A program made the position numbers and the translations under genes. Positions 1,823 to 16,510 of a stretch of 21,823 nt of DNA are shown piece after piece. This DNA comes from a virus, in IMG/VR virus record IMGVR_UViG_3300031276_000129, positions 1 through 21,823 of that record. One strand, 5' to 3'. Positions within the stretch are counted from its first letter, which is position 1. Each line of letters begins with the position of its first letter. The notes beneath the pieces are model-generated. The model was not told where the DNA came from and ran no database searches. It saw only the letters and a program-made list of their open reading frames with translations.

Positions 1823-2012
1823 GGATACAATAAGAAAAGAGACCGAGAGTAGTCTAATTAAGATGTGTTCCGATCTTGATGACCAGAAAATAATTCTGTT
1901 GAGTATTATTGACGTTTGGAAGCATTCAAAAAATGCTAGTGGAATGATACAGGCGTTGTCGAATATAGATTTAGCTATAAGATCGTTGGAGAAAATAATT
2001 AGAGGTCTTTAG
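1812..2012 (+). CDS. Small helical protein, function unknown
   Basis: The product is 66 residues, starting at ATG 1812 inside the end of the preceding gene, with GGTGAGGGAG as ribosome site. An in-frame ATG at 1791 is less likely because it lacks an SD. The protein looks almost wholly alpha-helical and amphipathic (ETESSLIKMCSDLDDQKII, later MIQALSNIDLAIRSLEKII), with no cysteine pairs, signal or membrane segment. It overlaps its upstream neighbour by 11 bases and ends two bases before the next start, which is operon-like packing. No function can be assigned. Confidence 0.6.
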   Translation: MKNEDTIRKETESSLIKMCSDLDDQKIILLSIIDVWKHSKNASGMIQALSNIDLAIRSLEKIIRGL

Positions 2013-2014
2013 TT

Positions 2015-2218
2015 ATGGTGGAGTATTTCATTAAAGGCTTTGCCAATGCGTTTGATTTATTTGGAGTATTGAGACATAGTACTCAAAACATACAAGAAGA
2101 TGGTTTTAAGAAAGACATGGAAGCCATAGCCGGTGACTGGCAAGCTGTAGGCGATGACCTTAGACGGGTGATGAAGTGTTACTCTAAAGCCCATGGACTT
2201 TTTAAACAAGCGAAATAG
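2015..2218 (+). CDS. Small protein upstream of the IS607 element, unknown
   Basis: The product is 67 residues. ATG 2015 has AGAGG about ten bases upstream, at the end of the previous gene. The sequence is mixed helical (MVEYFIKGFANAFDLFGVL, later EAIAGDWQAVGDDLRRVMK) and ends with a basic tail. The segment AIAGDWQAVGDDLRRVM is typical of short phage proteins with no known role, and no motif is recognised. It is the last intact phage gene before the gene interrupted by the IS607 element, whose remnant ATG lies 20 bases downstream. Confidence 0.6.
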   Translation: MVEYFIKGFANAFDLFGVLRHSTQNIQEDGFKKDMEAIAGDWQAVGDDLRRVMKCYSKAHGLFKQAK

Positions 2219-2238
2219 AAAAATACTCAAAAGCGGGG

Positions 2239-2280
2239 ATGTTGACAGCAAACGAAGACTGCCTTAGACTAGGACTATGA
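2239..2280 (+). pseudogene. 5' remnant of a phage gene split by the IS607 element
   Basis: ATG 2239 begins MLTANEDCLRLG and would stop at TGA 2278-2280 just inside the element. The codons CTA GGA at 2269-2274 carry a GG at 2272-2273. On the other side of the element the frame TTG GGT AAG at 4041-4049 carries a GG at 4044-4045. Replacing everything between the two GG pairs gives CTA GGT AAG TTT, a continuous frame of about 120 codons ending at 4373. IS607-type serine recombinases are known to join ends at a GG dinucleotide, so this reads as the interrupted N-terminus. The SD for 2239 is weak (only a G-run adjacent), which lowers confidence. Confidence 0.5.
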
Positions 2281-4044
2281 GGGTCAAATTATCAGAATGG
2301 GCCAAGCAAACAGGTATAAGTTTCAAGACTGCCCAGAGGTGGTTTTATTCTGGTAAGATGCCTGTTTCCACAATCAGAACCCCCACGGGTAGGATTATGG
2401 TTATACTCGAAGAACCTGTTAGCAAGGATGAACGTACCGTGTTATATGCCCGAGTATCTTCATCAGATCAAAAAGGCGATTGTCAACGGCAGGCAGATCG
2501 GCTTCGCTTATTGGCTACAGGGCGAGGATGGTCGAATATTGAAATTGTGTCTGAGATAGGTTCTGGTTTGAACGGTCACCGTAAGCACTTGATTCGATTA
2601 TTATCGGATCCCACAGTTAGACGCCTTGTTGTTGAGCACCGCGACCGTCTTGCGAGATTCGGTGTTGAGTACATCGAAGCTGTTTTGAAGGCCCATGGTA
2701 GAGAGCTTGTGATAGCGGAAGAAGGAGAACAGAAGCTTGACATAGTTCAAGATTTTATTGATGTGGTAACATCTATGTGTGCCAGAATTTATGGTCGACG
2801 AGCAGCAAAAAATAGAGCGAAGCGAGCTGTTGATGCCGCTGGAGAAAAGGTTACTTGATACGGTCACATAAAATCAGGTTAGATCCGAACGATAAGCAGG
2901 CTACTGGATTATCGCGGGCGGCTGGCTGTGCTAGGTTTGCATGGAATTATGCGTTGTCCGAATGGAAACGACAGTATGCGTTAGGCCAGAAACCGAGTGA
3001 GACAACTTTGCGAAAGCAGTTAAATGCGGTAAAAAGGGAGCATTATCCGTGGATGTTGGAATCCACAAAGAATGCTCCGCAGCAGGCGATCAAGAATCTT
3101 GGTACAGCGTTCAAAAATTTTTTTAAAAAACGAGCAAGATATCCTAGGTTTAAGAAAAAGGGTATTCATGATTCTTTTAGGGTTGACAATGGACCTGGTA
3201 CGTTTGAGACAGATGCAGAAAAGATCCGGATCCCTAAAATAGGTTGGGTACGAATGCGAGAGGCATTACGATTTGAGGGGCGCATTATTTCGGCTACGGT
3301 GTCGAGACGTGCAGATCAGTGGTATGTGAGTATTCAGGTGGAGGTCGAGGATGTTCCAATTGTGTGCAAGAGCCAAGGCACGGTTGGGGTGGATCTCGGT
3401 ATTAGGCATCTGGCGACACTATCTACAGGGGAGCACATTGAAGGACCGAAGTCATTAAAGAAAGCGTTGCCGAGGTTGCGTCGACTGAATAAGTCGGTTA
3501 GTCGAAAGAAGAAAGGATCGAAGAATAGACAGAAGGCGAAGGCCAAGTTGGCACTGGAACACATTCGGATTTCAAATATTCGAAATAATTTCTTACACAA
3601 TCTGACAACGAAATTGGTGCGACAGTTTAGTGTCATTGTCATCGAAGATTTGAACGTATCAGGAATGATGAAGAATCGGCATTTGTCACGAGCGATATCG
3701 GATATGGGTTTTTTCGAATTCCGTCGTCAACTAAGTTATAAGGGACCGTTATTCGGTTCCGAAATTTTGGTTTATCCTAGATTTGCTCCGTCATCGAAGA
3801 AATGTTCTTATTGTGGGTATGTGATTGAGAATCTACCGCTATCCATTAGGGAATGGGATTGTCCTAGTTGCGGAACAGCCCATGACCGCGATGAGAATGC
3901 TGCGAAGGTTTTAAGGAATTGGGCCGCGAGTTTCTCGGTATCAGCCTGTGGAGAAGGTTGCTCTGGCGCGCAGATTTGCAAGTGCGTGAAACGATCTTCT
4001 GAGAAGCAGGAAATCAACACTGAACAAGGTATGTCCTTGCTTGG
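2273..4044 (+). mobile_element. IS607-family insertion sequence (tnpA + tnpB)
   Basis: The element is about 1.77 kb and holds a serine recombinase gene followed by tnpB, the IS607 arrangement. It shows no terminal inverted repeats or target duplication, as expected for the family. The ends are placed at GG 2272-2273 and GG 4044-4045 because joining them restores a phage reading frame. With these ends tnpA starts only four bases inside the left end, and the TnpB stop codon is completed by flanking DNA. Both are unusual enough that the left end could instead lie some tens of bases upstream. Both genes are uninterrupted and retain their active-site residues, so the element may be active or recently inserted. 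CGN arginine codons seem somewhat more frequent than in the neighbouring genes. Confidence 0.75.
2277..2858 (+). CDS. tnpA: IS607-family serine recombinase (transposase TnpA)
   Basis: The product is 193 residues, close to the usual size for this family. Residues 4-30 form a MerR-like helix-turn-helix (KLSEWAKQTGISFKTAQRWF), the N-terminal DNA-binding domain characteristic of IS607 transposases. Residues 53 onward form the resolvase catalytic domain. YARVSSSDQK carries R59 and the nucleophilic serine, S61 by alignment to the resolvase ARVS motif, and EHRDRLARFG (120-129) supplies the conserved arginines R124 and R127. A C-terminal basic helix follows. The enzyme would cut and rejoin element ends through a covalent serine-DNA intermediate with little target specificity. 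The stop codon overlaps the tnpB start (TTGA), so the two are probably translated together. Confidence 0.93.
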   Translation: MRVKLSEWAKQTGISFKTAQRWFYSGKMPVSTIRTPTGRIMVILEEPVSKDERTVLYARVSSSDQKGDCQRQADRLRLLATGRGWSNIEIVSEIGSGLNGHRKHLIRLLSDPTVRRLVVEHRDRLARFGVEYIEAVLKAHGRELVIAEEGEQKLDIVQDFIDVVTSMCARIYGRRAAKNRAKRAVDAAGEKVT

Positions 4045-4048
4045 GTAA
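2855..4048 (+). CDS. tnpB: TnpB RNA-guided endonuclease of the IS607 element
   Basis: The product is 397 residues, a normal TnpB length. The start is TTG 2855, overlapping the tnpA stop, with GGAGAAAAGG just upstream. The N-terminal helix-turn-helix-like OrfB region contains RFAWNYALSEW (about 27-37) and PRFKKKG. The RuvC-like nuclease motifs are all present: D180 in GVDLGIRHLATLS, E264 in VIVIEDLNVSGM, and HDRDENAA at 343-350. The C4 zinc finger is C317-x2-C320 and C336-x2-C339. The tail ACGEGCSG...KQEINTE matches the style of TnpB C-termini whose coding DNA doubles as guide-RNA scaffold. Biochemically studied TnpB proteins cut DNA next to a short TAM under omega RNA guidance. All catalytic residues are kept, so activity is plausible. 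Confidence 0.94.
   Translation: MIRSHKIRLDPNDKQATGLSRAAGCARFAWNYALSEWKRQYALGQKPSETTLRKQLNAVKREHYPWMLESTKNAPQQAIKNLGTAFKNFFKKRARYPRFKKKGIHDSFRVDNGPGTFETDAEKIRIPKIGWVRMREALRFEGRIISATVSRRADQWYVSIQVEVEDVPIVCKSQGTVGVDLGIRHLATLSTGEHIEGPKSLKKALPRLRRLNKSVSRKKKGSKNRQKAKAKLALEHIRISNIRNNFLHNLTTKLVRQFSVIVIEDLNVSGMMKNRHLSRAISDMGFFEFRRQLSYKGPLFGSEILVYPRFAPSSKKCSYCGYVIENLPLSIREWDCPSCGTAHDRDENAAKVLRNWAASFSVSACGEGCSGAQICKCVKRSSEKQEINTEQGMSLLG
3900..4045 (+). ncRNA. Candidate omega RNA scaffold at the tnpB 3' end
   Basis: The tnpB 3' end contains a run of small hairpins that coding alone need not explain. CAAGG-TATGT-CCTTG (4025-4039) is a perfect 5-bp stem directly before the inferred right end at 4044-4045. 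CTTC-TGA-GAAG lies at 3996-4006. A weaker TTGC/CTG...CAG/GCAA stem lies around 3958-3984, and a CCG/GAG...CTC/GG element near 3923-3937. Known TnpB systems process an omega RNA from this part of the mRNA, with the guide supplied by DNA just past the right end. By that rule the guide would start near 4045. The boundaries are approximate and the 5' limit is a guess. Confidence 0.4.
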
Positions 4049-4373
4049 GTTTGATGAAACGGTAATTGGTTTCAAGAACAGGAGTACGGCTTTTTTAAAA
4101 AACCTAAATCCTGATTTTTTATCAGATGGAGAGTGGGATGAACGCAAAGTTTCAATTAAAGAATTATCTTCAGTTAAAACAGTAAATGACGTCATGAAAT
4201 ATCTAGGAGTAAAAAGGTCTGATGTTTTTGCTCGTGCCCTTCAAAGTGGGCTCAGACAGTTTGGCCTGGCTTCTAGGGTAGTTGTTAATGACGAATTTTT
4301 TGATGTTTTAATAAGTGCAGAGAGACCTGTGGAGTATGCGAGTCTGAGACTTAGATTTGGAGATGAAGAATGA
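4041..4373 (+). CDS. 3' part of the IS-split phage gene, possibly still translated
   Basis: The frame is open from 3990 and the first usable start is TTG 4041, inside the tnpB 3' end, with AAGG 11 bases upstream. This would give 110 residues. From G2 (GGT 4044) onward the sequence appears to be the original phage protein, whose first 11 residues lie at 2239-2271. The product reads GKFDETVIGFKNRSTAFLKN, then a helix-rich middle (VNDVMKYLGVKRSDVFARAL). No family is recognised. Its stop overlaps the start of the next gene (ATGA at 4370-4373), so it may be coupled to the peptidase-like gene. The original start would be ATG 2239. Confidence 0.6.
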   Translation: MGKFDETVIGFKNRSTAFLKNLNPDFLSDGEWDERKVSIKELSSVKTVNDVMKYLGVKRSDVFARALQSGLRQFGLASRVVVNDEFFDVLISAERPVEYASLRLRFGDEE

Positions 4374-5080
4374 ACGCTTTGGTTTTTTATTCAAGTCGTG
4401 ATTCAAAGGGTAAAGTTGATGCATCAGGGGCCTTTATTCCTGAGGCGAAAGCGTTTGCAAAAAGGCATGGTATCCCAGATGAGGATGTCATCGGAATAGA
4501 TTGCACGAAGAGGAATCCTGCGAGTGTGAGGAGATCTTTGGTAATTAAGGAATTATCTCGAAGTGACAAAACAGATCTAGAGGTATTGGCATTTTTTGGT
4601 CATGGTTGGCCAGATGGCATCCAGTTCGGTTTCAGAAGACAGCATATACCGTTGCTAGTAGAAAGCCTTCCTTATCCAGTTAGAACCGATTTAAAGGTAG
4701 GCCTATTCGCATGTCTTACTGCTGAAAATGATAAACGGGACAGTGATCGTAAAAATATTGGACCGGGTACTGATAATGGATTTGCTGACCGGTTACGAGA
4801 TGGGCTGGTAAGACATGGGGTAACTGATGGGTGGGTGGATGCTCACAAGACGGCTGGACATACCAATTGGAATCCGTACGTCGTTAGGATGCGATGCAGT
4901 GACGTGGTTAATCCAGAGCGAGGGGGTATAGGTGGTATATGGTTAGTACCACCTAGTTCACCACGCTGGAAGCGTTGGTGTAAGGCGTTAAGAGACAAGG
5001 ATACTGGACTTAGATATGATTTTTTAGTTATGGATAGAGATGAGATAATCGAAAAAATACAAATCAGACAGGATATTTAG
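4370..5080 (+). CDS. Caspase/gingipain-like (clan CD) cysteine peptidase candidate
   Basis: The product is 236 residues. A hydrophobic strand ending in FFGHGW (LEVLAFFGHG, H78) and a second ending in FAC (LKVGLFACLTA, C115) lie 37 residues apart. This His-Gly / Ala-Cys layout is the hallmark of clan CD peptidases (caspase, gingipain, legumain, CHAT). The following GPGTDNGFADRLRDGL, a later HTNWNPYVVRM and a C-terminal PSSPRWKRWCKALRD look like conserved blocks of a family seen in phages and prophages as hypothetical proteins. H78 and C115 as the catalytic pair is an inference. The start overlaps the upstream stop (ATGA). No signal peptide or membrane segment is visible. The substrate is unknown; it could be a virion protein, a host protein or a defence component. 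Confidence 0.65.
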   Translation: MNALVFYSSRDSKGKVDASGAFIPEAKAFAKRHGIPDEDVIGIDCTKRNPASVRRSLVIKELSRSDKTDLEVLAFFGHGWPDGIQFGFRRQHIPLLVESLPYPVRTDLKVGLFACLTAENDKRDSDRKNIGPGTDNGFADRLRDGLVRHGVTDGWVDAHKTAGHTNWNPYVVRMRCSDVVNPERGGIGGIWLVPPSSPRWKRWCKALRDKDTGLRYDFLVMDRDEIIEKIQIRQDI

Positions 5081-5081
5081 T

Positions 5082-5480
5082 ATGAAATTATCAGAAAAAA
5101 TACTTGAGGATATTGAATCGAACAAATGTGGTTGCGAAACGTGTCAAAAGAGGAGTCGTATTGTTACTCCGGTCATAGATGCATTGGTCACAGCTCTTGA
5201 TCAGGTGGATTTGGACGACAGAGAGCATATGGGGCTGCCTGAGTTTATTGAGGCAGTTTTGATAATGACAAGTGCAATGGTAGAGATATCTCCTTCCAAT
5301 ATTGAATTTGTGTCTTGTCAAGCTTTGCTGCTTGCTGAGAAATTTCGTTCTCTAAATAATCATTTTTCCATTAGAGCTGCTATTGAGGAAGGGATATCGG
5401 ACTTTGTGAGTAAATATTTGATACTTAACAATACATTTCCTGGGTTTAATAATGATGATGAAGGTAACACTGTGCATTAA
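5082..5480 (+). CDS. Unknown protein with N-terminal CxCxxC
   Basis: The product is 132 residues. ATG 5082 follows the upstream stop by one base, with AGGA eight bases before it. Residues 16-21 form C-G-C-E-T-C, a compact cysteine cluster that could bind metal, although no second cysteine pair lies close by. The rest is predicted helical (VTPVIDALVTALDQVDLDD, later EFIEAVLIMTSAMVEI) and ends with an acidic tail (FNNDDEGNTVH). It is rich in hydrophobic residues but has no clear transmembrane stretch. No family is recognised. It sits in a tight operon directly after the peptidase-like gene, which could mean a shared function but does not show it. Confidence 0.6.
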   Translation: MKLSEKILEDIESNKCGCETCQKRSRIVTPVIDALVTALDQVDLDDREHMGLPEFIEAVLIMTSAMVEISPSNIEFVSCQALLLAEKFRSLNNHFSIRAAIEEGISDFVSKYLILNNTFPGFNNDDEGNTVH

Positions 5481-5491
5481 AGGTGGTTTTT

Positions 5492-5800
5492 ATGTGGGAA
5501 AAATCGAATAGCGATCCTCCGGCCTACACGAGTGAGGATCGAAAATGGGGATTAGTAAGAATGGATTCTGGATGGATACTTCATTTTTTATCATCTGGTA
5601 GGTCAATAAGGGAGGTTTATTCTTTTGATAGTGAGGATCCACCGTTAGATAGAGCATCGGACAAAGTGAATGAGATTAACAATAAGAGAAAAGGTGCGTC
5701 ATGGAAAGAGGTATCAATTAGGGGACGTCCTGGTGAAGAGGGTCCATTAGGTGGACGGCCGATTCCTATGCAGACGCAAGACAAAAGGAGGAAAAAGTGA
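5492..5800 (+). CDS. Small phage protein, function unknown
   Basis: The product is 102 residues. ATG 5492 is chosen over GTG 5483 because AGGTGG lies six bases upstream of it. The N-terminal half is beta-like with aromatic residues (WGLVRMDSGWILHFLSSGRS), and the C-terminal half is a disordered basic and glycine/proline-rich tail (RGRPGEEGPLGGRP, then DKRRKK). The tail could contact nucleic acid, but nothing more specific can be read. The last four bases overlap the GTG start of the next gene, and AGGAGG for that gene lies within its own final codons. Confidence 0.6.
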   Translation: MWEKSNSDPPAYTSEDRKWGLVRMDSGWILHFLSSGRSIREVYSFDSEDPPLDRASDKVNEINNKRKGASWKEVSIRGRPGEEGPLGGRPIPMQTQDKRRKK

Positions 5801-6009
5801 CAGCGATGAATAAGGTTTTGGCAGACGTTACAAAGACGGAGCAGGTTGTCGTTTGTGCTTATTGTTCAGAAAGGCATAACGTAAACACTGATGGTTTTAT
5901 TGTGGTTTTTGGTGATATTCATAAGGGAATGGATACACCTGTAATTTCAGGAAATATAAGCGATAGGGGTAAGCTTATTGGGTCCATTGGTATTGTGTAC
6001 GAAACATGA
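5797..6009 (+). CDS. Small protein with a CAYC knuckle, unknown
   Basis: The product is 70 residues. GTG 5797 has AGGAGG about five bases upstream and overlaps the previous stop; an ATG three codons later (5806) is the alternative start. Residues 20-23 are C-A-Y-C followed by SERH, half of a zinc knuckle. The remainder looks like a beta-strand domain (GFIVVFGDIHKG, later GKLIGSIGIVY). No family is recognised. About 45 bases then separate it from the next gene, with no terminator visible. Confidence 0.55.
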   Translation: MTAMNKVLADVTKTEQVVVCAYCSERHNVNTDGFIVVFGDIHKGMDTPVISGNISDRGKLIGSIGIVYET

Positions 6010-6054: not shown

Positions 6055-6522
6055 ATGGTTAAGGTAAAATATCCGGTAAGTATATCAAACAGACAGCGTC
6101 CATTCGTTTTTGTCGCAGGATCTGGTGGGGCATGGATTGATCAAGTTGAGAAAGGGCTTGAGAGTCTTCCTAAGTGCACACTTATTATTCCCTCTGATGG
6201 TCCAGTGGAAGGAGTTACCGAGGATTGGGGGATGTGGAGGTATCGTGCAGCGTGGGAAGCAGACGTTATAGCCATTTGGTTTGGATCAGGTAATGATCAG
6301 GAACTCAAGTTAATTGAGCTAGGGCTACACGTGGGGAGATATTGTTCAGGAAGCGGTGCTCGAAGAATGATTATTGGAGTAGATAAAGGTTGTCGGTTTA
6401 AGGATAAGATCGAGGCAATCGTAAATGCTTCAAACATCAATCTTCAAGGGTCTTGGAAATTTGAGATAATAGATTCACTGGACCGTTTTTGTTTAAAAGT
6501 TAAAAACTGTGCCACAAGGTAA
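6055..6522 (+). CDS. Nucleoside 2-deoxyribosyltransferase-like protein
   Basis: The product is 155 residues. ATG 6055 has AGGAG seven bases upstream. The N-terminal FVFVAGSGG is a glycine-rich strand-loop of the Rossmann-like fold. The middle, WGMWRYRAAWEADVIAIWF (58-76), matches the family layout of a W-x3-E/A-x-ADVI-strand. KLIELGLHVG (85-94) matches the S/L-x-x-ELG motif that carries the active-site glutamate, here E88. Family members swap bases on deoxynucleosides or hydrolyse the N-glycosidic bond. In a phage the role could be nucleotide salvage, base modification, or NAD or nucleotide-signal metabolism, none of which the sequence can decide. Its end overlaps the GTG start of the next gene by 14 bases. 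Confidence 0.7.
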   Translation: MVKVKYPVSISNRQRPFVFVAGSGGAWIDQVEKGLESLPKCTLIIPSDGPVEGVTEDWGMWRYRAAWEADVIAIWFGSGNDQELKLIELGLHVGRYCSGSGARRMIIGVDKGCRFKDKIEAIVNASNINLQGSWKFEIIDSLDRFCLKVKNCATR

Positions 6523-7846: not shown

Positions 7847-8590
7847 ATGATGGCCGGATTGTCGTTTCATGAATTATGGGATCAGTCTGAAGCTTTTAGG
7901 ATTATGCTTATAAGTCAAAGGTGCTTCAACGCAGCAAATAGGTTTGATCTAGGGTTGGCTGAAGCATTATGGGATGACCGGTTTCCAAGAATAGGGTGGG
8001 ATTTTTGTCAGGTGGATGGGTGTACCTGTTTGGTAAAAGCTGGTGAGAGATGTATAAAGCATATTCATGACGTGGACAATATTCCTAGTTTTAAATGGGC
8101 TAAGGGATATTTGTATCATTATGTCACCAGGAATTCACATGATAAAAATAGGCCCGTAAGAAGGTATTATGATTACGAAAGAAACGATTTGTACGTATGG
8201 AGATATAATTATGGAAAAGTAAACCCTGGGTATAAAATAAGGCAGATAGACAGAAATCCTTTTAATCATAGGATCGGAAATCTTTTTTTATTGAGTCGGT
8301 ACATTGCCCCAGCTTATGACGCAGACGTCATTAATGCTTCGGAGGCTTTGAAAATGGATGATGTTATGCCAGAGGTACTAAGAGACCGTCTTGGAGGTGG
8401 ACGAAGAAGTGGATGGGTATATGGAATAGATGGTATTGCGAAGACTGCTGGTATCAGAGAAGGTAGGGTTAGACAGGAGATAAGTCGTGGCAATCTTTGT
8501 CCTGGTGATCTTTCATCCGTTGTTGATTTTTGTAAAAGACACCAGGAAAAGCGTATATTAAAGATGGAGCGAATGAAAAATGGCAGATAA
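7847..8590 (+). CDS. HNH-endonuclease-derived protein with degenerate catalytic motif
   Basis: The product is 247 residues. C54-x4-C59-x-C61-x7-C69-x2-H72 resembles the CxxxGC...C..H zinc knuckle placed before phage HNH nucleases. Residues 126-150, NPGYKIRQIDRNPFNHRIGN then LFLLS, follow the HNH_3 pattern (G-x-x-I-D-H-x-D-x-N-P-x-N-N-R-x-x-N-L). However, the usual first histidine is Q133 and the Asn of N-N-R is H141. Residues 190-232 (GIDGIAKTAGIREGRVRQEI) look like a C-terminal helix-turn-helix. HNH proteins beside terminases assist packaging cleavage in some phages such as HK97. Loss of both residues suggests DNA binding without cutting, or an altered active site. It overlaps the next gene by 11 bases. 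Confidence 0.6.
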   Translation: MMAGLSFHELWDQSEAFRIMLISQRCFNAANRFDLGLAEALWDDRFPRIGWDFCQVDGCTCLVKAGERCIKHIHDVDNIPSFKWAKGYLYHYVTRNSHDKNRPVRRYYDYERNDLYVWRYNYGKVNPGYKIRQIDRNPFNHRIGNLFLLSRYIAPAYDADVINASEALKMDDVMPEVLRDRLGGGRRSGWVYGIDGIAKTAGIREGRVRQEISRGNLCPGDLSSVVDFCKRHQEKRILKMERMKNGR

Positions 8591-9314
8591 AATTGTAAAA
8601 TTAAAGGATCATCACGATAAGAGACAGAAGAACGGGCGTTCTAATACCAGCGTTTCAAAGGACAATGTTAGGAATTATGATCCAGGTGCGCAAATTAGAC
8701 GTCTAAAGTGTTATCCGGAAGTTGACCAGATGGTTCGGCAAGGTTCTTATGTCAAAGACGTTGTTACCTATATACATGGGGAGGGAGAACTTACCCATCT
8801 ATCAGCAGAAGCAGTTGGCCATATAGTAATGAGATATAAGCGTCATGTTTTTTCAGATCACATGGTTGAAGATTCCGGGGACGTAATAAAAAAGATAGGA
8901 GATTTAGATAAGGATAATCCTGCATCTGTTGTTTTTGCGTTGCAGGAAATGTATTACTTAATGATGGATAGAATAAGAATGGAGTCCGAGACAGAAAAAA
9001 CTCTGAATAAACTTTTTTCTACGACTCATAAAGAATTTATGACTATGACGATAGTTGGTAGAGAACTTCTTAAATTTATGAAAGAGTTCGACATGATGAA
9101 CAGTACGACTCCATTGTCTCAAAAAAGTGGGTCATTTCCGGGAGGGGTAGACGTTGGTGGGGTAGCCACGAATCCTAATCCTGAGTCTAGACAGAAGTTA
9201 TTGGGTATTCTTGGAATTGTTATGAATAATCCGGATATGTTATCTGGAATGCTTGACAAGGTTAATGAGGGTGAAAAAAAGAGCAATAGGCCAAAGAGGA
9301 AGAAAACCAAGTGA
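8580..9314 (+). CDS. Putative terminase small subunit
   Basis: The product is 244 residues and is assigned mainly by position directly upstream of, and overlapping, the large subunit. Residues 41-85 (RRLKCYPEVDQMVRQGSYVK then DVVTYIHGEGELTHLSAEAV) have the helix pattern of a helix-turn-helix DNA-binding segment in which a repeated-unit recognition helix would fit. The middle is long amphipathic helix (FALQEMYYLMMDRIRMESET), consistent with oligomerisation. The C-terminus is very basic (KKSNRPKRKKTK). Small terminases bind phage DNA and regulate the motor. No specific family signature is visible, so this could be another packaging-associated DNA-binding protein. The stop overlaps the GTG start of terL. 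Confidence 0.5.
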   Translation: MADKIVKLKDHHDKRQKNGRSNTSVSKDNVRNYDPGAQIRRLKCYPEVDQMVRQGSYVKDVVTYIHGEGELTHLSAEAVGHIVMRYKRHVFSDHMVEDSGDVIKKIGDLDKDNPASVVFALQEMYYLMMDRIRMESETEKTLNKLFSTTHKEFMTMTIVGRELLKFMKEFDMMNSTTPLSQKSGSFPGGVDVGGVATNPNPESRQKLLGILGIVMNNPDMLSGMLDKVNEGEKKSNRPKRKKTK

Positions 9315-11395
9315 TAATCGAGACAAAAACAGGCCGACGAAAATCAGTTCTTACAAATGATGAAGTTGCTAGGGAACTTTTAAAGAGGATGAAAGGCCTT
9401 GGTAGAGATGAGTTGTCTTGGCTTGGTCAGATAGCAGAAGAACTTCAGTTTTTAATTAAAGATGGTAAGGATGGTTTTGAGGCAGTAGATGAGATTAGAG
9501 AAAAATCATCGATGTATCTTAATCATGCTGATCGTCATTATGAGGGGAGAATTCTTGGTGTTGAAGAATTCTGTATGGACAAAAATTATCTTGGGCATAT
9601 AGGTGCATATCTTTATGATCAATGGAAAAAGGATCTAATAGAGCTTTTCCGTGGTCAATATAATGAGGCCATTGTTACGGGGAGCATCGGTAGTGGGAAG
9701 ACTACGTTCATTGATATTGGTCTCTCTTACATGTTTTATGAACTATGTATGCTTAGGGATCCACAGGCCACATTTGGATTAATGCCTGGTTCTGAGATTG
9801 TACTAGTGTGTTTTAATCGTGATCAGCAACTTGCCAGGGATGTTACTTTTGGTGGGTTTAAGAGGAAGATAGAGGGGAGTCCTTTTTTTCAGCATCTTGG
9901 AATGAAGTTTGGAACCTCGGAACTCTCTTATCCAAGGAAGAATATCAAAGTAATAGCAATATCGGCTAAGTCAGCTAATGCGTTGGGACGAGATGTTTTT
10001 GGTGGAATCATTGACGAAACTGATTTTATTGACGGAAGTATTCTAAAGGGGAATGGTGGGCTTCCACGTCCAGGCGAGAAGCCGTTTGTTGAGATGCTTC
10101 ATGAGTCAATAAAAAGAAGAATGGCTTCTAGATATGATAGGGCTGGAGTTTTACCAGGTAAATTATTTATGGCGTCTTCTGCCAGACATAAAAAGTCGTT
10201 TTCAAACAGGAGGATAAGTGAAGCCGCAATTGATCCAAGCGTTTTCTGTAGGGATTATGCTATTTATGATGTTGCTCCTAGTGATAGGTTTTCTAAAGAT
10301 AAATTTTGGGTAATGATTGGAAATGAGCGCATAAACCATGAGATTTTGTCTAGGAAAAAGTATCGTTCTATAGGGGAAAATGGTCGAAGAAAATTAGAAG
10401 AACAGGGATGTAGATTTATAAGGGTTCCTATTAATTTCAAATCTGATTTTGAGCGTAACATAGAAGATGCTATTCGTGATATTGCTGGTGTAGTAACAGT
10501 AGCAGTATCTCCTTTCTTTCAGATTCGTAGTCGACTATATGAAATGATAGACCCAACATTGACGTCTCCGGTAAAGGTTACTGAGTGGTGCACAGACAGT
10601 GTTCTTGAAATAGATTGGAGTTTGCTTTCTAAGAGATATAGGAGAAGGATTGGTCCTGGCGATTATGTGGAGGACTTGGGTCCAGTTCGTCATCCTGGAG
10701 CACCAAGACATGTCCACTTGGATTTAAGCCTGGGTCTTACAGATCCGGCTGGAATGTGTATTGCTCATGAAGTGGGGAAGATCAGCATTGAGAGGAGAGC
10801 TTCAGATGGAACACTTGCCAAGGAAGAAGTTCCTTTGATTGAGGTTGATTTTCTTATGAGGATTATTGCTCCACCAGGTGGGGAGATTGATTTTGGTGCG
10901 ATCCGTGGTGTTATTTATGATTTTCAGAGACATGGATTTAATATTGCTTTTGCTTCGATGGATTCTTTTCAGTCAAGGGATACATTACAGCAGCTTGCCT
11001 CGAAGGGGATAGATGGAGAGATAATCTCTGTAGACAAGACGGTTGAACCATATACGTGTATGAAGACAGCTATTTACGAGGGACGTCTAAGTGTGTACAA
11101 TTATCCAATTTTGATTGAGGAACTTGAGCAGTTAGAGCGAGATGAGGTTAAAAGCAAGGTAATTCATCCTCCAAATGGTAGCAAAGATGTAGCAGATGCT
11201 TTATGTGGGGTTGTTTTTAGCCTTACAACGAAACAATCGTATAATGCATCAATACTAGTTGGTATAAATGAATATTCAGGTGAAGATAAAAGAGATGATG
11301 AATGGATACGTAGTACAATGGTTCGATCAGGGGAAAAGGCCCCTGTCGAGGTTAAAAATGGTGAATACGATGGCCCGCTTATATTTAGTGGGTGA
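9311..11395 (+). CDS. terL: Terminase large subunit (DNA packaging ATPase-nuclease)
   Basis: The product is 694 residues. GTG 9311 overlaps the previous stop, with AGAGGAAG about ten bases upstream. The ATPase domain has Walker A TGSIGSGKTT (123-132) and Walker B with FGGIIDETD (D235, E236). SSARHK at about 289-294 fits a coupling motif. The C-terminal RNase H-like nuclease domain shows HVHLDLSLGLTDPAG (D471), a central strand FASMDSFQS (D551) and SKDVADALCGVVF (D626/D629), the three acidic positions expected for metal-dependent cutting. The protein would dock on the portal, translocate DNA by ATP hydrolysis and cut it at initiation and headful completion. It is longer than T4 gp17 by several tens of residues, mainly in an N-terminal helical region. 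Confidence 0.93.
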   Translation: MIIETKTGRRKSVLTNDEVARELLKRMKGLGRDELSWLGQIAEELQFLIKDGKDGFEAVDEIREKSSMYLNHADRHYEGRILGVEEFCMDKNYLGHIGAYLYDQWKKDLIELFRGQYNEAIVTGSIGSGKTTFIDIGLSYMFYELCMLRDPQATFGLMPGSEIVLVCFNRDQQLARDVTFGGFKRKIEGSPFFQHLGMKFGTSELSYPRKNIKVIAISAKSANALGRDVFGGIIDETDFIDGSILKGNGGLPRPGEKPFVEMLHESIKRRMASRYDRAGVLPGKLFMASSARHKKSFSNRRISEAAIDPSVFCRDYAIYDVAPSDRFSKDKFWVMIGNERINHEILSRKKYRSIGENGRRKLEEQGCRFIRVPINFKSDFERNIEDAIRDIAGVVTVAVSPFFQIRSRLYEMIDPTLTSPVKVTEWCTDSVLEIDWSLLSKRYRRRIGPGDYVEDLGPVRHPGAPRHVHLDLSLGLTDPAGMCIAHEVGKISIERRASDGTLAKEEVPLIEVDFLMRIIAPPGGEIDFGAIRGVIYDFQRHGFNIAFASMDSFQSRDTLQQLASKGIDGEIISVDKTVEPYTCMKTAIYEGRLSVYNYPILIEELEQLERDEVKSKVIHPPNGSKDVADALCGVVFSLTTKQSYNASILVGINEYSGEDKRDDEWIRSTMVRSGEKAPVEVKNGEYDGPLIFSG

Positions 11396-11410: not shown

Positions 11411-12652
11411 ATGACGAATCGTTTAGAAGAAATAAGAGCTTTAAAGGAAATGATAGCAAATACAGCGTCGACGGGAAGGAGAAGGCGTGGGATGTTAATG
11501 TCCGAAGAGCCGGAAGACAATGAGGATGATTTTGTTATACCGATGAGAATAAAGAACAAGAAGATTAAAAATAAAAAAACAACTACCAGTATACGTTCGA
11601 AGAGGACATTCAAGGAGTGGTTTATCGAGGTAGCAGATTTCATAGAGGAAATAACAGGTATGGAGTTGGATGTACTTCCAGATATTCCTTGGAGTAAGAT
11701 GTACAGGGATAAGATGACAGTAGATGAGGCTGTCCATAATGCTTTAAGGATTGCAGAAGAAGACGTTGAAGAGGATTTTAGTAATTTGTCTTATAGTGAT
11801 TGGTTGTCGGGAGTAAATGAGGAACTGTTATCTTCTGGTAATGATACGACAGAAGAAATGAGAAAAAATGGTGCACTTACTCACAGTAAGCTTCATATGC
11901 TTTATATGGACTATAGGGATCCAAATGATGCAGTAGGGGAAATATTGAAAACTAGAGTTGTTTCTAAAACGAGAGTTACAAAAGAAGATGTTGATTGGAT
12001 TAGTAGATTGGACCGCAAGAGAGGTCCTGATTTGTCAAAGCTTATGCGTAGTCTTGGTATGTCATCGAGCAAAATATCCAAGACAAAGGAATTACCGATT
12101 GATGAGAGCCAGGACGATGAGGAAACTATTCCGGTATATTCTGATAGGTGTAGGGTTAATCCTATTGATGAGGCTCTTGGGATAATGCCTGTTAAAGAGT
12201 CTGTTGATATGGATATCATAAAAAATGCAATAGAAGGGGTAAATAAAGACAAGAGAAAATCAGGCAAGGTCAATATTGAGGAAGCATCTGTCCTTGGTGG
12301 TGATTTTGGAAGGTGGGGTAGTGCTACTGCAGCTGCTTCAGCGACTGGTTCTGGTATTGCGAAAAAGATTAGTAATGGAGACGTCAAGTATACATTTAAT
12401 CCTGATGGGATACCGCAGAGTGGAGAAGGTGGAACAACACTTTGGTTCAATTTTTCACCTGATAAAAAAGATGTGGATAATTATTGGATAGGCTTTCAGA
12501 TTAGTGGTGATAAAGAGGACCCAAATTGGGGTATCAAGATAAAGAAAGGTAAGGGATTAGGATCTTCGTCTACTGTTGCGTCAAAGACTGGGTTAAAATC
12601 GAGTGACCTGAAATCTGCATCTATTGGTATTAAAAACGAGTTGGGCAAATAA
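11411..12652 (+). CDS. Unknown protein between terminase and portal
   Basis: The product is 413 residues. ATG 11411 has GGAG eight bases upstream. The N-terminal region is an acidic linker (SEEPEDNEDDF) followed by a strongly basic patch (RIKNKKIKNKKTTTSIRSKR). A helical middle includes a region rich in acidic residues (IAEEDVEEDFSNLSYSDWL). The last 110 residues are glycine/serine-rich with aromatic strand-like segments (TLWFNFSPDKKDVDNYWIG), and look like a separate beta domain. No family is recognised. Its position between terL and the portal makes a head, packaging or core role plausible, but nothing in the sequence demonstrates it. In T4 tail genes sit at this place, and it does not look like a tail sheath or tube protein. 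Confidence 0.65.
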   Translation: MTNRLEEIRALKEMIANTASTGRRRRGMLMSEEPEDNEDDFVIPMRIKNKKIKNKKTTTSIRSKRTFKEWFIEVADFIEEITGMELDVLPDIPWSKMYRDKMTVDEAVHNALRIAEEDVEEDFSNLSYSDWLSGVNEELLSSGNDTTEEMRKNGALTHSKLHMLYMDYRDPNDAVGEILKTRVVSKTRVTKEDVDWISRLDRKRGPDLSKLMRSLGMSSSKISKTKELPIDESQDDEETIPVYSDRCRVNPIDEALGIMPVKESVDMDIIKNAIEGVNKDKRKSGKVNIEEASVLGGDFGRWGSATAAASATGSGIAKKISNGDVKYTFNPDGIPQSGEGGTTLWFNFSPDKKDVDNYWIGFQISGDKEDPNWGIKIKKGKGLGSSSTVASKTGLKSSDLKSASIGIKNELGK

Positions 12653-12663
12653 GGAAAACAATT

Positions 12664-14364
12664 ATGGGCAAAAAAGATTTTTCAGGTATTTCGTTTATTA
12701 GAGACGTTTTCAGGAGAGATAACCAGCGTCAGCAGTTGGCTGTATCAACAAAAGAGTTGGCTCATAATGCTGGTAGATTATCTTCCTTTGGATCTTCCTT
12801 TGGATCTTCTGTTGATGCCCAAATGAGTGGGGATGTTAAAAGCATGTTGGAGTTGGATCGTAGGATGCTTTACAGGTATCGGGATTATGAGGAGATGGAT
12901 GATTATCCTGATATTTCGTCAGCTTTGGACATTTATGCAGATGACGCAACCCAAGTAGACAGTGAAAAAGGTAAGACAGTCTGGGTTCATAGTTCAGATG
13001 AGCAAGTAAAAAATGAGCTTACAGATCTTTTTGATAAAAGGATAGAGGTTGATAACGTAATTTGGGAATTAACAAGAAATCTTTGCAAGTACGGTAACGA
13101 CATGGAGGAAATCCTAGTTGGGGATCATGGTGTTGTTGGTATTAGTTTTTTGCCTACTCCAACCATGAGAAGGGTTGAGAGTAGTCGTGGAGATTTACTT
13201 GGGTTTATTCAGACATTTTCTGACACGATGGATATTACTGCAGAACAATTTGAGAAGTTTAAGATACAGGGTGGAGCTAAATTAAGCGAGAGCAGGGATA
13301 TGGCAGCGTTTGAAGATTGGAGGGTTGCGCACACCCGTCTGACGTCTAAGCATCGTGAGGCTATGTATGGATGGTCAGTTGCCGATTCTGCAAGGTGGGT
13401 ATGGAAACGTTTGATGTTACTTGAGGATGCTGTCCTGGTTTATAAATTAACTCGCTCGCCATCGCGGTACGCATTCTATATTGATGTGGGAAAGACGAGC
13501 AAACAGGATGGTGAGAGAATAATGCAGGAGGCTATGCATAGATTAAAAAAGAAAAAATTCGTAGATAAAAATGGAAAACTAGATTTAAGGGCATCTCCTA
13601 TGTCAATGGATCAGGATTTTTTCTTATCTATGAGAGATGGAAGAGAGAGCACGCGAGTTGAGTCATTGATGGGTCCGTCGTATCAGCAGGTTGATGATGT
13701 TCAATATTTTTTATGGAAACTTTATGCAGCGTTAAAAGTCCCAAAAGCTTACATGGGATATGACGAAAACATGCCTAGTAAGGCTACGTTGAGTCAGGAA
13801 GACGTAAGATTTGCCAGAACTATTCTTCGCGTTCAACGAGAGGTGAGAAACGGTCTTAAGAAGATTTGTCGTGTTGATTTAGCTGCAAGAAAGATAGACC
13901 CTTCTGTTATAGATTTTGACGTAAAGATGACTGTTCCAAGTTCTGTTTTTGAACTTGGTCAGATGGAAGCGAGAAGAGCTAGGGCAGATCTGGCATCAAT
14001 GATGGAGCGACATGTATCATTGCTGTGGTTGCTTAAAAATGTCTATGGTATGAGTGATACAGAGGTTGAAGAAATAACAGCACAGAAAAAGAAAGAGGGT
14101 TCTGAGCGAGCTGCTATGGGGGGGGGCCTTGAATCTATTCAAGGCTCACCTTATCATCGTTTGGAGCATCCTCATCCTAGTAAAGTTCGTCCGTATGGGT
14201 CGATAACGGAGCGTGAGTTAATGTCTGGAAATAAGGAGCATGAGAAACAGATTGAGGAAACAATTTTAAAGGCGATAGGAAATCCTAGTAGTGTCTTAGG
14301 ACGTCAGCTTAAAGAGACAGGAATGTTTTTGCGTGAGATACTAAGCGCAGTTAAGACTAAATAG
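12664..14364 (+). CDS. Portal protein, T4 gp20 type
   Basis: The product is 566 residues, similar in size to T4 gp20. ATG 12664 follows AAGGAAAA. Family-typical segments are YRYRDYEEMDDYPDISSALD (74-93), where the pattern E-M-D-x-x-P-x-I-x-x-A-L-D-I-Y is characteristic. Others are NLCKYGND, a strand region LLEDAVLVYKLTRSPSRYAF (258-277) matching the gp20 R-A-P-x-R-x-F-Y-x-D-V-G block, YFLWKLYAALKVPKAYMGYD and the late SQEDVRFARTILRVQ. The dodecameric ring would sit at one vertex, nucleate prohead assembly and receive the terminase. The N-terminus has a short SSFG repeat. A 9-base G-run lies near the C-terminus (14118-14126). Confidence 0.9.
   Translation: MGKKDFSGISFIRDVFRRDNQRQQLAVSTKELAHNAGRLSSFGSSFGSSVDAQMSGDVKSMLELDRRMLYRYRDYEEMDDYPDISSALDIYADDATQVDSEKGKTVWVHSSDEQVKNELTDLFDKRIEVDNVIWELTRNLCKYGNDMEEILVGDHGVVGISFLPTPTMRRVESSRGDLLGFIQTFSDTMDITAEQFEKFKIQGGAKLSESRDMAAFEDWRVAHTRLTSKHREAMYGWSVADSARWVWKRLMLLEDAVLVYKLTRSPSRYAFYIDVGKTSKQDGERIMQEAMHRLKKKKFVDKNGKLDLRASPMSMDQDFFLSMRDGRESTRVESLMGPSYQQVDDVQYFLWKLYAALKVPKAYMGYDENMPSKATLSQEDVRFARTILRVQREVRNGLKKICRVDLAARKIDPSVIDFDVKMTVPSSVFELGQMEARRARADLASMMERHVSLLWLLKNVYGMSDTEVEEITAQKKKEGSERAAMGGGLESIQGSPYHRLEHPHPSKVRPYGSITERELMSGNKEHEKQIEETILKAIGNPSSVLGRQLKETGMFLREILSAVKTK
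12781..12804 (+). repeat. Two tandem 12-bp repeats in the portal gene
   Basis: The unit TCTTCCTTTGGA occurs twice in direct tandem, followed by a partial third copy (TCTTC). It encodes SSFGSSFGSS near the portal N-terminus, a flexible serine/glycine segment. The unit length keeps the frame, so copy-number change would not disrupt the protein. Confidence 0.8.
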
Positions 14365-14493
14365 TAAAAGTGATCCAGTTAGACACATATCTGACACATA
14401 ATACACACAACTAAATTAAAAAAATATTTAAAATAGATACAGTTTATTGACATTGTGTCTGTTTGGATTCGTAATGTTAAAAGAGAGGTATTG
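14365..14493 (+). promoter_or_regulatory. AT-rich intergenic region with a possible promoter
   Basis: This 129-base gap is among the largest in the head module. It holds two direct copies of GACACATA (14382-14389 and 14393-14400) at an 11-base period, followed by a CACACA run, then an A/T tract. TTGACA (14447-14452) with a 17-base spacer to CGTAAT (14470-14475, four of six matches to TATAAT) could form a sigma70-type promoter for the downstream gene. AGACACA (14381-14387) is inversely repeated as TGTGTCT (14454-14460). GAGAGG at about 14483-14488 is the SD of the gene starting at 14494. No terminator is visible. The promoter call is weak, since late genes of such phages often use modified promoters. 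Confidence 0.35.
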
Positions 14494-15357
14494 ATGCATA
14501 AATCTCTAGTCGTAGAGGCAGAAAAATTAAATGGTCTAGTAGTTGGTTCTTATGAGGATTTGCTTCAGAGAACCAGTTTGGCTGTTGATGAAAATGCTCA
14601 TAAATGGGGTGGAGACGTTACGCTATTTGCCACTTATCCAGATCACGTAGTGGTGTATCTTGAAGATCAGGGTTTTTTTTCTTGTAGGTACAGGCGAGAT
14701 GGAGAGAATGGCATTGAGTTCGTAGGGGAAATGGTTCAAGAGGATGTTCCTATTATTGATGAGGATATGTTGGCGTCACGTGGTATTGACGCTATGTATT
14801 CAGGTAGATCAATAGGATCAGTTCTTATGCATATTGCTTCGGTTTCTCCTGTTAAATTTACACCGAGTATTGCAGAGTCAAAAATAGACAAACTATTTGG
14901 AAGGTCTCTTTGGCGTGATTATGTATTAAAAGATAAAGCTAGGATTGTTGAATACATCTCTAAAGATGGGTCATTTAGCATAAAAGAAGAATTTCCTTTT
15001 TCTGATGGAATGAAAGATTCTGAAAGTGTTCTTTCTTCTCTTGTGAAGATGTCTCAGGTGTTTTCAGAAATGAATGCAGCTGTACTTGAATCTGTTTCTG
15101 TTTATCAAGAGAAAACTGGTGGAATGAGGACACCTGACGAAGATATTATACTGTCAAAATTTGATTCTATTGCTGGGGATATTCTTGAGAATATTGATAA
15201 TACACTTGATAGTATTTCTGAAGCAATTCGCGAATCAAGAAAAGGTAATTATGGCTATTCCAAAATAATTTATGATGGAGTAGCCAATGAGTATGATAGT
15301 TTTCATTTAGGATGTCGATTCATTTGCAAAATGGCTAATGATTTGGCGTCTATTTAA
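14494..15357 (+). CDS. Putative prohead-core-region protein, unknown
   Basis: The product is 287 residues. ATG 14494, with AGAGAGG five bases upstream, is preferred over GTG 14455, which has no SD. The N-terminal 90 residues include a segment FATYPDHVVVYLEDQGFFSC followed by RYRRDGENGIEFVGEMV. This resembles the beta-rich short domain that some phages carry in or near their prohead-protease and core proteins. The remainder is mostly helical with heptad-like spacing (DILENIDNTLDSISEAIRES). It lies between the portal and the protease, where T4 has the core proteins gp67 and gp68, so a core role is inferred from position. No motif fixes it. Confidence 0.6.
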   Translation: MHKSLVVEAEKLNGLVVGSYEDLLQRTSLAVDENAHKWGGDVTLFATYPDHVVVYLEDQGFFSCRYRRDGENGIEFVGEMVQEDVPIIDEDMLASRGIDAMYSGRSIGSVLMHIASVSPVKFTPSIAESKIDKLFGRSLWRDYVLKDKARIVEYISKDGSFSIKEEFPFSDGMKDSESVLSSLVKMSQVFSEMNAAVLESVSVYQEKTGGMRTPDEDIILSKFDSIAGDILENIDNTLDSISEAIRESRKGNYGYSKIIYDGVANEYDSFHLGCRFICKMANDLASI

Positions 15358-15373
15358 CAGTTGGAGGATAGGA

Positions 15374-16486
15374 ATGTCTAATAAGTCGTTGTTAGATGGT
15401 TTTTCGAAACTTGGGATGACATCAAGAGAAATCAGTGAGGCCATGACACCACTTGGTGAGCGATTTGATAAAAATGGTATTGACAATGGCATTGGAGACA
15501 ATGCCTATTTATCAGAAGAAGGAAGTGTAGAAGAGGGATTTGTGAAGTTACGTCCGCTAGCTGTGCGCAGGAAAGCAGCAAAGGCGGCCAAGATACGGAG
15601 GAGATCTGGATCAGGCAAGCAGGCTTATCTTCATCAACTGAAGATGGCTAAGACGGGTGTAGCTAAGCAGAAGCGGAAAAAGCACTATAAACTATTGAAA
15701 GCCAGGGGTGGCCCTAAAAAGGGTAGCAGAATGATGACAGCATCATTTGATAACCCTGGGAAAGGATTGAAGATCATGTCTGAGAAATTAATGCAAAATA
15801 TAATGCAACTTGCTGAAGCTATCGACAGGGATCCTGAAGATCGTTTTGATGAGTATGCAGAGGCCTTTAACCACATTGCCGATATCGGTGAATTGGCTGC
15901 GATTCAGTTGATGGATGTGGATGAGGAAGCAGCAAAGGACGTACTTAATTTATCACTTGCGGCAGAGTCTGTTCTTAAGCATATGGAGAGTCTTGATGGG
16001 GCTTTGACAGAGGAAGAGGATGCAGACCTGGAAGAGACTTTACAGGATGCTATGGAGAGTGTTGGGGAATACATGACAGAGTATGGCCTCATTACAGAGG
16101 AAGATGAAGAAGACGACGATGAAGATGAGGATGAGGATGATGATGACCTTGAGGAGGATTACCTTAATGGTGATGAGGATGACGACCTTTTGTCAGCATT
16201 CAGGACGCTGAAGGAGGCAAGAGCAGCTGTTAAGGCAAAAGGTAAAAAAGGTCGTGGCAAGAAAGAGATAAAGAGAATGGCTCCTCCTAAGTCCCGTAAG
16301 ATCATGACTGCCAAGGGTATTAAGAGAAAAAAAGGTGCTTCCAATTGGAGTAAAAAGAATCCTGCAGGTAATGCATCCAGTAAACAGATCGCAAACCGTG
16401 GAGACGTCAGAGACAAAGAGGCTCTTCTTGGATATCTTCGTCAGGTAAAAATGGGGAAAGTGGCTCCTGGTCAGTCGTTGCGTTAA
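15374..16486 (+). CDS. Highly charged putative prohead core/internal protein
   Basis: The product is 370 residues from ATG 15374 with GGAGGAT just upstream. Charge is segregated. Residues about 60-120 are basic (VRRKAAKAAKIRRR, QKRKKHYKLLKARGG), 130-210 are helical, and 213-271 are very acidic (EEDEEDDDEDEDEDDDDLEE at about 242-261). Residues 285-330 are basic again (KAKGKKGRGKKEIKRM, IKRKKGASNW). Such blocks suit a prohead core or scaffold protein, or an internal protein that contacts DNA, and its place before the protease matches T4 core genes. Possible protease sites exist, but none is identified with confidence. No sequence family is recognised, and the low-complexity composition makes distant similarity unreliable. 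Confidence 0.6.
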   Translation: MSNKSLLDGFSKLGMTSREISEAMTPLGERFDKNGIDNGIGDNAYLSEEGSVEEGFVKLRPLAVRRKAAKAAKIRRRSGSGKQAYLHQLKMAKTGVAKQKRKKHYKLLKARGGPKKGSRMMTASFDNPGKGLKIMSEKLMQNIMQLAEAIDRDPEDRFDEYAEAFNHIADIGELAAIQLMDVDEEAAKDVLNLSLAAESVLKHMESLDGALTEEEDADLEETLQDAMESVGEYMTEYGLITEEDEEDDDEDEDEDDDDLEEDYLNGDEDDDLLSAFRTLKEARAAVKAKGKKGRGKKEIKRMAPPKSRKIMTAKGIKRKKGASNWSKKNPAGNASSKQIANRGDVRDKEALLGYLRQVKMGKVAPGQSLR

Positions 16487-16510
16487 GCAATAAAAAAAGG
16501 ATTTTTGATC

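What the first reader, a model, noticed from the sequence alone, without database searches (positions are those of the whole stretch)
4370..5080. Caspase/gingipain-like peptidase encoded by a phage
LAFFGHG (H78) and GLFAC (C115), each at the end of a hydrophobic strand and 37 residues apart, form the clan CD His-Gly / Ala-Cys dyad. Bacterial caspase-like and CHAT proteins are known as suicide effectors in anti-phage defence and in type III CRISPR systems, so a phage copy is of special interest as a counter-defence enzyme, a decoy or a virion-maturation protease. Conserved-looking blocks (NGFADRLRD, HTNWNPYV) suggest a defined family of its own. The head protease is a different gene at 16511.
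Basis: partly seen in the sequence, partly recalled or inferred. Interest (0 to 1): 0.65.

Follow-up and report, generated by a model that had tools for sequence, protein, structure and literature searches.

The report
Unrecognised caspase-fold protease family in phages
A tailed phage carries a small gene whose product is predicted to have the same fold and the same His-Cys active-site pair as caspases; it belongs to a family not catalogued in the libraries searched, found in about 28 environmental phages, whose bacterial cousins are joined to cell-wall-digesting and toxin-injection parts.

Summary
ORF 4370-5080 (+, 236 aa) is intact. Its His78-Gly and Cys115 are invariant in a previously uncatalogued family: the window, 27 IMG/VR contigs and one standalone Myxococcota gene. 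An AlphaFold2 model (pLDDT 91, pTM 0.91) puts H78 and C115 two residues past consecutive core strands. Its best structural matches are clan CD enzymes (metacaspase-9, caspases, a toxin autoprotease). A separate model of a 29%-identical member matches SAVED-CHAT best, with gingipain also matched. The protein has no hit in Pfam, PHROGs, NCBIfam, PADLOC, PDB sequences or isolate phages.

New here: (1) a third invariant histidine, H159; (2) homologous domains, found in 19 Myxococcota proteins, often in large proteins with glucosaminidase, SleB-type hydrolase, tail-lysozyme, LysM, SH3 or eCIS-core domains. These form the sister side of a 100%-supported split from the phage clade. So the closest relatives found are cell-wall-associated or injected domains, not defence caspases.

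The proposed roles are not supported. The head protease is another gene, no defence linkage was found, and the phage gene has no conserved partner. My best reading is an autonomous cysteine endopeptidase that cleaves host proteins, possibly envelope proteins late in infection. The enzyme class is likely; the substrate is unknown.

The parts
4370..5080 (+). Clan CD-like cysteine peptidase gene, 236 aa, intact
   Evidence: ORF; 25-member family alignment; AF2 model pLDDT 90.9, pTM 0.91; Foldseek PDB hits dominated by clan CD
4359..4362 (+). Shine-Dalgarno-like GGAG, 7 bases before the ATG
   Evidence: sequence
4418..4420 (+). Asp17, start of helix 1 after strand 1; invariant in 25/25 phage-clade rows but not in the bacterial multidomain clade
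4601..4606 (+). His78-Gly79, two residues past strand 3 (residues 72-76): presumed catalytic His
   Evidence: invariant in 25/25 phage-clade and 19/19 bacterial rows; strand positions
4712..4714 (+). Cys115, two residues past strand 4 (residues 109-113): presumed nucleophile
   Evidence: invariant in 25/25 and 19/19 rows; strand positions
4844..4846 (+). His159, last residue of strand 5 (155-159): third invariant polar residue, a mark of this family
   Evidence: 24/24 phage-clade rows that reach it and 19/19 bacterial rows
4859..4861 (+). His164 of the GHTTxN motif, nearly invariant (N in one phage; T or N in two bacterial rows)
4041..4373 (+). 110-aa ORF overlapping the peptidase start by 4 bases; no family match and no homologue at the related loci; its 5' end abuts the IS607-type element, so it may be a truncated gene
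5082..5480 (+). 132-aa ORF directly downstream, no family match, not conserved at related loci

Best explanation
The gene encodes a single-domain cytoplasmic cysteine endopeptidase with a caspase-like (clan CD-type) fold. His78 (end of strand 3) activates Cys115 (end of strand 4), and the invariant His159 at the end of strand 5 lines the active site or the substrate pocket. It was drawn from a bacterial domain family that is otherwise used at the C-terminal end of cell-wall-associated and eCIS-loaded proteins. The phage uses it as a stand-alone, partner-free accessory effector made during infection that cleaves host proteins, plausibly envelope or cell-surface proteins near the end of infection. 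Shown here: the gene, the invariant residues, the confident predicted fold, the homology to the bacterial domains. Inferred: catalysis, timing, substrate and benefit. The confidence given is for a catalytically active clan CD-type cysteine peptidase acting on a protein target; the late/envelope role alone I put at about 0.3.
For: Invariant H78, G79, C115 and H159 across 44 sequences. Confident AF2 model with the order b1-a1-b2-a2-b3(H)-a3-b4(C)-a4-b5(H)-b6, reproduced for a 29%-identical member, L025. Foldseek: the window model hits metacaspase-9 (E 1.2e-3, prob 0.97), TcdB protease domain, caspases 7/8/3/2 and CED-3 in most of the top 50; the L025 model hits SAVED-CHAT (E 1.3e-4, prob 1.00), gingipain R (prob 1.00), Csx29 and caspase-6. 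Bacterial homologues at E down to 1.9e-24, besides full-length standalone copies, carry Glucosaminidase+SH3, LysM+Hydrolase_2+PG_binding_1, LysM+Phage_lysozyme2+GDSL, or eCIS_core, with the domain generally towards the C-terminus. Three of ten also give sub-threshold DUF4347 matches (E 0.002-0.004) on this same domain. No shared partner gene at the phage loci, so it is likely to act alone. Some phage copies lie beside lysis-type genes: SLT transglycosylases in one lineage (L010, L011, L014, L021) and a holin-like gene (L028/L029).
Against: No activity data. TM-scores to solved clan CD structures are only 0.26-0.48 and the window model's best E is 1.2e-3; the L025 search also returns PLP-enzyme and Rossmann-fold hits. 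No sequence-profile match to C14, C25 or CHAT. The lysis link rests on few lineages: other copies lie beside replication, recombination, methylase or tail genes. Clan CD folds also include inactive or non-proteolytic members, and a conserved dyad could serve another thiol hydrolase chemistry.
Confidence: 0.68

Rival explanations
1. Counter-defence: the phage peptidase cleaves, or acts as a decoy for, a host immune protein such as a CHAT/caspase effector pathway component.
For: The L025 model's closest folds include SAVED-CHAT and Csx29, both anti-phage effectors. Copies are rare, scattered and in variable accessory positions, as counter-defence genes often are. One of the 120 neighbouring proteins matches DarA_C, an anti-restriction family.
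Against: Nearest sequence relatives are cell-wall/eCIS domains, not CHAT. No PADLOC match. All presumed catalytic residues kept, which argues against a pure decoy.
Confidence: 0.15
2. Cell-wall enzyme: the caspase-fold domain has been turned to peptidoglycan or wall-peptide chemistry (amidase, endopeptidase or transpeptidase) and helps lysis.
For: Bacterial homologues are fused to glucosaminidase, SleB-type hydrolase, tail lysozyme, LysM, SH3 and PG_binding_1. Some phage copies are next to SLT transglycosylase or holin-like genes. The extra invariant His159 and near-invariant His164 are unusual for a caspase-type site (the comparison is from general knowledge).
Against: No clan CD enzyme is known to me to cut peptidoglycan; the phage protein has no obvious signal or wall-binding domain; other neighbours are replication genes.
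Confidence: 0.15
3. Self-serving defence: a toxin or abortive-infection/superinfection-exclusion enzyme carried by the phage against competing phages.
For: Clan CD proteases are known suicide effectors (general knowledge); the gene is a non-syntenic accessory gene; the apparent prophage copy in G382 lies near an integrase-like gene.
Against: No regulator, sensor or immunity partner is conserved beside it; no PADLOC match.
Confidence: 0.12
4. Virion maturation protease.
For: It lies about 4 kb upstream of the terminase gene on the same strand.
Against: A canonical head maturation protease is encoded at 16505-18073 (phrog_207); family members are not tied to capsid genes.
Confidence: 0.03
5. Not a clan CD enzyme: another three-layer alpha/beta hydrolase with a chance His/Cys arrangement.
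For: Foldseek TM-scores below 0.5; Rossmann-type and PLP-enzyme hits also appear; a simple hhalign comparison cannot separate clan CD from alpha/beta hydrolases.
Against: Two models of divergent members put clan CD first; H and C sit at the same places relative to strands 3 and 4 as in clan CD; dyad invariant in 44 sequences.
Confidence: 0.12

Closest known systems
Caspase-like peptidase domains of bacterial polymorphic toxins (Tox-Caspase; Zhang et al. 2012, PMC3482391)
   Same: Caspase-like alpha/beta fold with an H, C active site; C-terminal position in secreted or PVC/eCIS-delivered proteins, as in the Myxococcota homologues
   Different: The phage protein is a lone domain with no delivery module; third invariant His159; no match to the curated caspase families
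CHAT proteases of SAVED-CHAT and Craspase (Csx29)
   Same: Best fold match of the L025 model (8tl0, E 1.3e-4); His and Cys after consecutive strands
   Different: No PF12770 sequence match; no SAVED, TPR or CRISPR partner; encoded by the virus, not the host
Peptidase C14 (caspases, metacaspases; PF00656)
   Same: Best fold matches of the window model; HG and AC motifs
   Different: No PF00656 match at E up to 1
Gingipain R (peptidase C25)
   Same: Fold match 1cvr, prob 1.00; His-Gly / Cys dyad
   Different: No PF01364 sequence match; far smaller; no pro- or adhesin domains
DUF4347 (PF14252)
   Same: Nearest Pfam profile: E 0.002-0.004 on the homologous domain of three bacterial relatives; the family profile weakly hits one true DUF4347 protein (G121); SHG and YGC motifs align with H78 and C115
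   Different: Below the curated cut-off; DUF4347 has ASxDxTG where this family has GHTTAGH; function of DUF4347 unknown

Membership tests
Clan CD (caspase-hemoglobinase fold) | alpha/beta core with catalytic His after strand 3 and Cys after strand 4 | tested here: met
   AF2 strands 72-76 (H78) and 109-113 (C115); the same in L025; Foldseek top hits clan CD
Clan CD (caspase-hemoglobinase fold) | Conserved His-Gly and (Ala)-Cys motifs | tested here: met
   H78, G79, C115 in 44/44 rows; residue 114 is Ala in 19/25 phage-clade and 18/19 bacterial rows
Clan CD (caspase-hemoglobinase fold) | H and C side chains face each other in space | not testable with these tools
   model coordinates are not returned
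Clan CD (caspase-hemoglobinase fold) | Thiol endopeptidase activity | not testable with these tools
   needs biochemistry
Peptidase C14 (PF00656) | Match to the family profile | tested here: not met
   no match at E up to 1
CHAT (PF12770) / Peptidase C25 (PF01364) | Match to the family profile | tested here: not met
   no match at E up to 1, though folds are similar
DUF4347 (PF14252) | Match over the curated cut-off | tested here: inconclusive
   no match for the phage protein; 17-18 bits against a cut-off of 24.6 for three bacterial homologues
Phage head maturation protease | Profile match and capsid-module position | tested here: not met
   no PHROG match; that role is filled by 16505-18073
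Known anti-phage defence protein | PADLOC model match | tested here: not met

The most novel reading that the evidence does not exclude
A phage-borne caspase-fold protease family with a His-Cys-His active site, derived from domains of cell-wall-targeting and contractile-injection proteins, that kills or opens the host by cleaving envelope proteins or wall peptides: a proteolytic component of lysis or host takeover not described before.
Probability: 0.25. Interest if true: 0.85.

Novelty: new variant of a known kind. Interest (0 to 1): 0.6.

Why it matters
Caspase-type proteases in bacteria are mostly studied as host suicide effectors against phages or as toxin-processing domains. A monophyletic family carried by phages, absent from the isolate phages searched and from the family libraries, shows viruses using the same fold. 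Its bacterial sister clade links cell-wall hydrolase proteins, eCIS cargo and phages through one conserved enzyme domain and supplies obvious mutants (C115, H78, H159) for testing what the domain cuts.

Tried and rejected
hhalign of the phage family against C14, DUF4347 and alpha/beta-hydrolase alignments: the negative control (alpha/beta hydrolases) scored as well as clan CD when the phage family alone was used, so I do not use those numbers; with phage and bacterial rows merged, DUF4347 (85%) exceeded the control (39%) and C14 (0.6%), which is suggestive only. Lysis-cassette association: looked strong by eye, but SLT neighbours come from essentially one lineage (L010/L011/L014/L021), and most other neighbours are replication, recombination or tail genes, so it is kept as a lead only. 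A small partner gene upstream (seen in many loci): neighbours are not homologous to one another except among close relatives. Defence-island idea: no PADLOC match. Decoy (dead enzyme): rejected because the active-site residues are invariant. BFVD structure search gave no E below 1e-3. Isolate-phage (50,697 records) and plasmid searches gave nothing. Bacterial neighbourhood scan showed no contractile-injection structural genes among the 25 commonest families, so delivery by eCIS rests on the eCIS_core domain alone. Literature searches in the held library found no description of such a phage family.

Full report
What is there. The window is an IMG/VR virus record of 21,823 bases. It carries a terminase large subunit (9311-11395), portal protein (12664-14364), head maturation protease (16505-18073) and major head protein (18134-19636), so it is a piece of a tailed phage. 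ORF 4370-5080 is intact, on the same strand, with a GGAG site before its ATG and a 4-base overlap with the preceding ORF. The paired motif appears in only 6 of 20,000 shuffles of this protein and in 2 of 653 other genes of the loci.

Family. The protein has no match in Pfam, PHROGs, NCBIfam, PADLOC or PDB sequences, and none in 50,697 isolate-phage or 72,556 plasmid records. Scans of IMG/VR brought in 27 viral contigs with relatives (L007-L032 and L044), 26-54% identical to the query used. In GTDB species genomes the pattern scan gave one standalone copy, L033, on a Myxococcota chromosome-like contig among cellular genes. In the 25-row alignment the only invariant residues are D17, F22, F76, H78, G79 and C115. 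H159 is present in all 24 rows that reach it, and H164 in 23 of 24.

Fold. AlphaFold2 on the 20-row alignment gives pLDDT 90.9 and pTM 0.91 with the order b1-a1-b2-a2-b3-a3-b4-a4-b5-b6; H78 lies two residues past b3, C115 two past b4, and H159 ends b5. Foldseek against the PDB ranks Arabidopsis metacaspase-9 first (E 1.2e-3, prob 0.97), then the TcdB protease domain and caspases 7, 8, 3, 2 and CED-3; most of the top 50 are clan CD. As a replicate I modelled L025, 29% identical to the window protein: pLDDT 86.8, same topology. Its best match is the SAVED-CHAT filament (E 1.3e-4, prob 1.00), with gingipain R (prob 1.00), Csx29 and caspase-6 further down, mixed with PLP-dependent and Rossmann-fold enzymes. 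TM-scores are modest (0.26-0.48), so the caspase-like core is well supported but the protein is a divergent version.

Bacterial relatives. A profile search of 379 genomes of the phylum of L033's host (Myxococcota) found matches in 21. Besides L033 itself, one is a full-length standalone copy (G382, 2.5e-59), about 9 kb from an integrase-like gene, so probably a prophage. The others run from 1.9e-24 to about 1e-11, plus three marginal ones; one of those marginal hits (G121) is a true DUF4347 domain. The 19 domains studied sit in proteins of 299-2416 aa, generally towards the C-terminus. Pfam scans of ten of the bacterial proteins show Glucosaminidase+SH3_3, SH3_3 pairs, LysM+Hydrolase_2 (SleB type)+PG_binding_1, LysM+Phage_lysozyme2+GDSL lipase, and eCIS_core in two. 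All 19 domains keep HG, C and H159. A maximum-likelihood tree separates the phage/standalone clade from the multidomain clade at 100/98 support, with L033 inside the phage clade. D17 is invariant only in the phage clade.

Context in phages. No neighbouring gene is shared by more than a handful of related contigs. Neighbours include DnaB helicase, exonucleases, DNA polymerase, RecT, a cytosine methylase, tail fibres, SLT transglycosylases and a holin-like protein. The copy often closes a rightward operon before a strand switch. This is how an autonomous accessory gene looks; it does not fix a role.

Interpretation. Most likely the gene makes a stand-alone clan CD-type cysteine endopeptidase with a His-Cys pair and a family-specific third histidine. 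Its sister domains are attached to wall-binding, wall-cutting and injection modules, and caspase-like domains in such proteins have been proposed from comparative genomics either to process toxins or to be the toxin (PMC3482391; eCIS-core proteins carry C-terminal toxins, PMC8213781). I therefore favour a host-directed proteolytic effector over a defence decoy or a virion protease. Residue conservation and homology are shown and the fold is a confident prediction; catalysis, timing and target are inferred.

Limits. Profile-profile comparison failed its negative control and is not used. Gene calls in GC-rich loci are approximate; L014 carries a frameshift and L026 runs off its contig; L044 was not aligned.

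Noticed in passing
window 2277-4048 (+): An IS607-type element: serine resolvase-like TnpA (PF00239, E 6e-18) overlapping an RNA-guided TnpB (guided_TnpB, 4.8e-98), inserted just upstream of the peptidase operon; the 110-aa ORF at 4041 may be a gene truncated by it. No Rfam match in 2000-6000.
   Followed up: partly
window 6055-6522 (+): 155-aa protein weakly like nucleoside 2-deoxyribosyltransferases (PF15891, E 0.055), a fold also seen in phage/defence nucleotide enzymes.
   Followed up: no
window 7847-8590 (+): HNH endonuclease-like protein (phrog_1891, 7.7e-7) two genes upstream of the terminase large subunit gene.
   Followed up: no
window 11411-12652, 14455-16486, 19720-20310, 20692-21318 (+): Several proteins in the head-gene region with no PHROG or Pfam match (or only weak ones), so this phage belongs to a poorly sampled group.
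   Followed up: no
L090, L094: Myxococcota eCIS_core (DUF4157) proteins whose C-terminal domain is homologous to this phage protein: candidate injected caspase-fold effectors.
   Followed up: partly
L082, L087, L089, L091, L098: Bacterial proteins joining peptidoglycan hydrolase modules (glucosaminidase, tail lysozyme, SleB-type) to the same caspase-fold domain, some with a further GDSL lipase domain.
   Followed up: partly
L085: A 2416-aa bacterial open frame with at least two copies of the domain (two separate profile matches, G228:C724).
   Followed up: no
L014:10001-10712: The family gene is frameshifted in this contig (frame broken near 10221-10360), a sequencing error or a decaying copy.
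   Followed up: no
L019:8640-8933 (-): Small ORF next to the peptidase that by eye resembles ADP-ribosyltransferase-type phage/toxin proteins (YHYT...).
   Followed up: no
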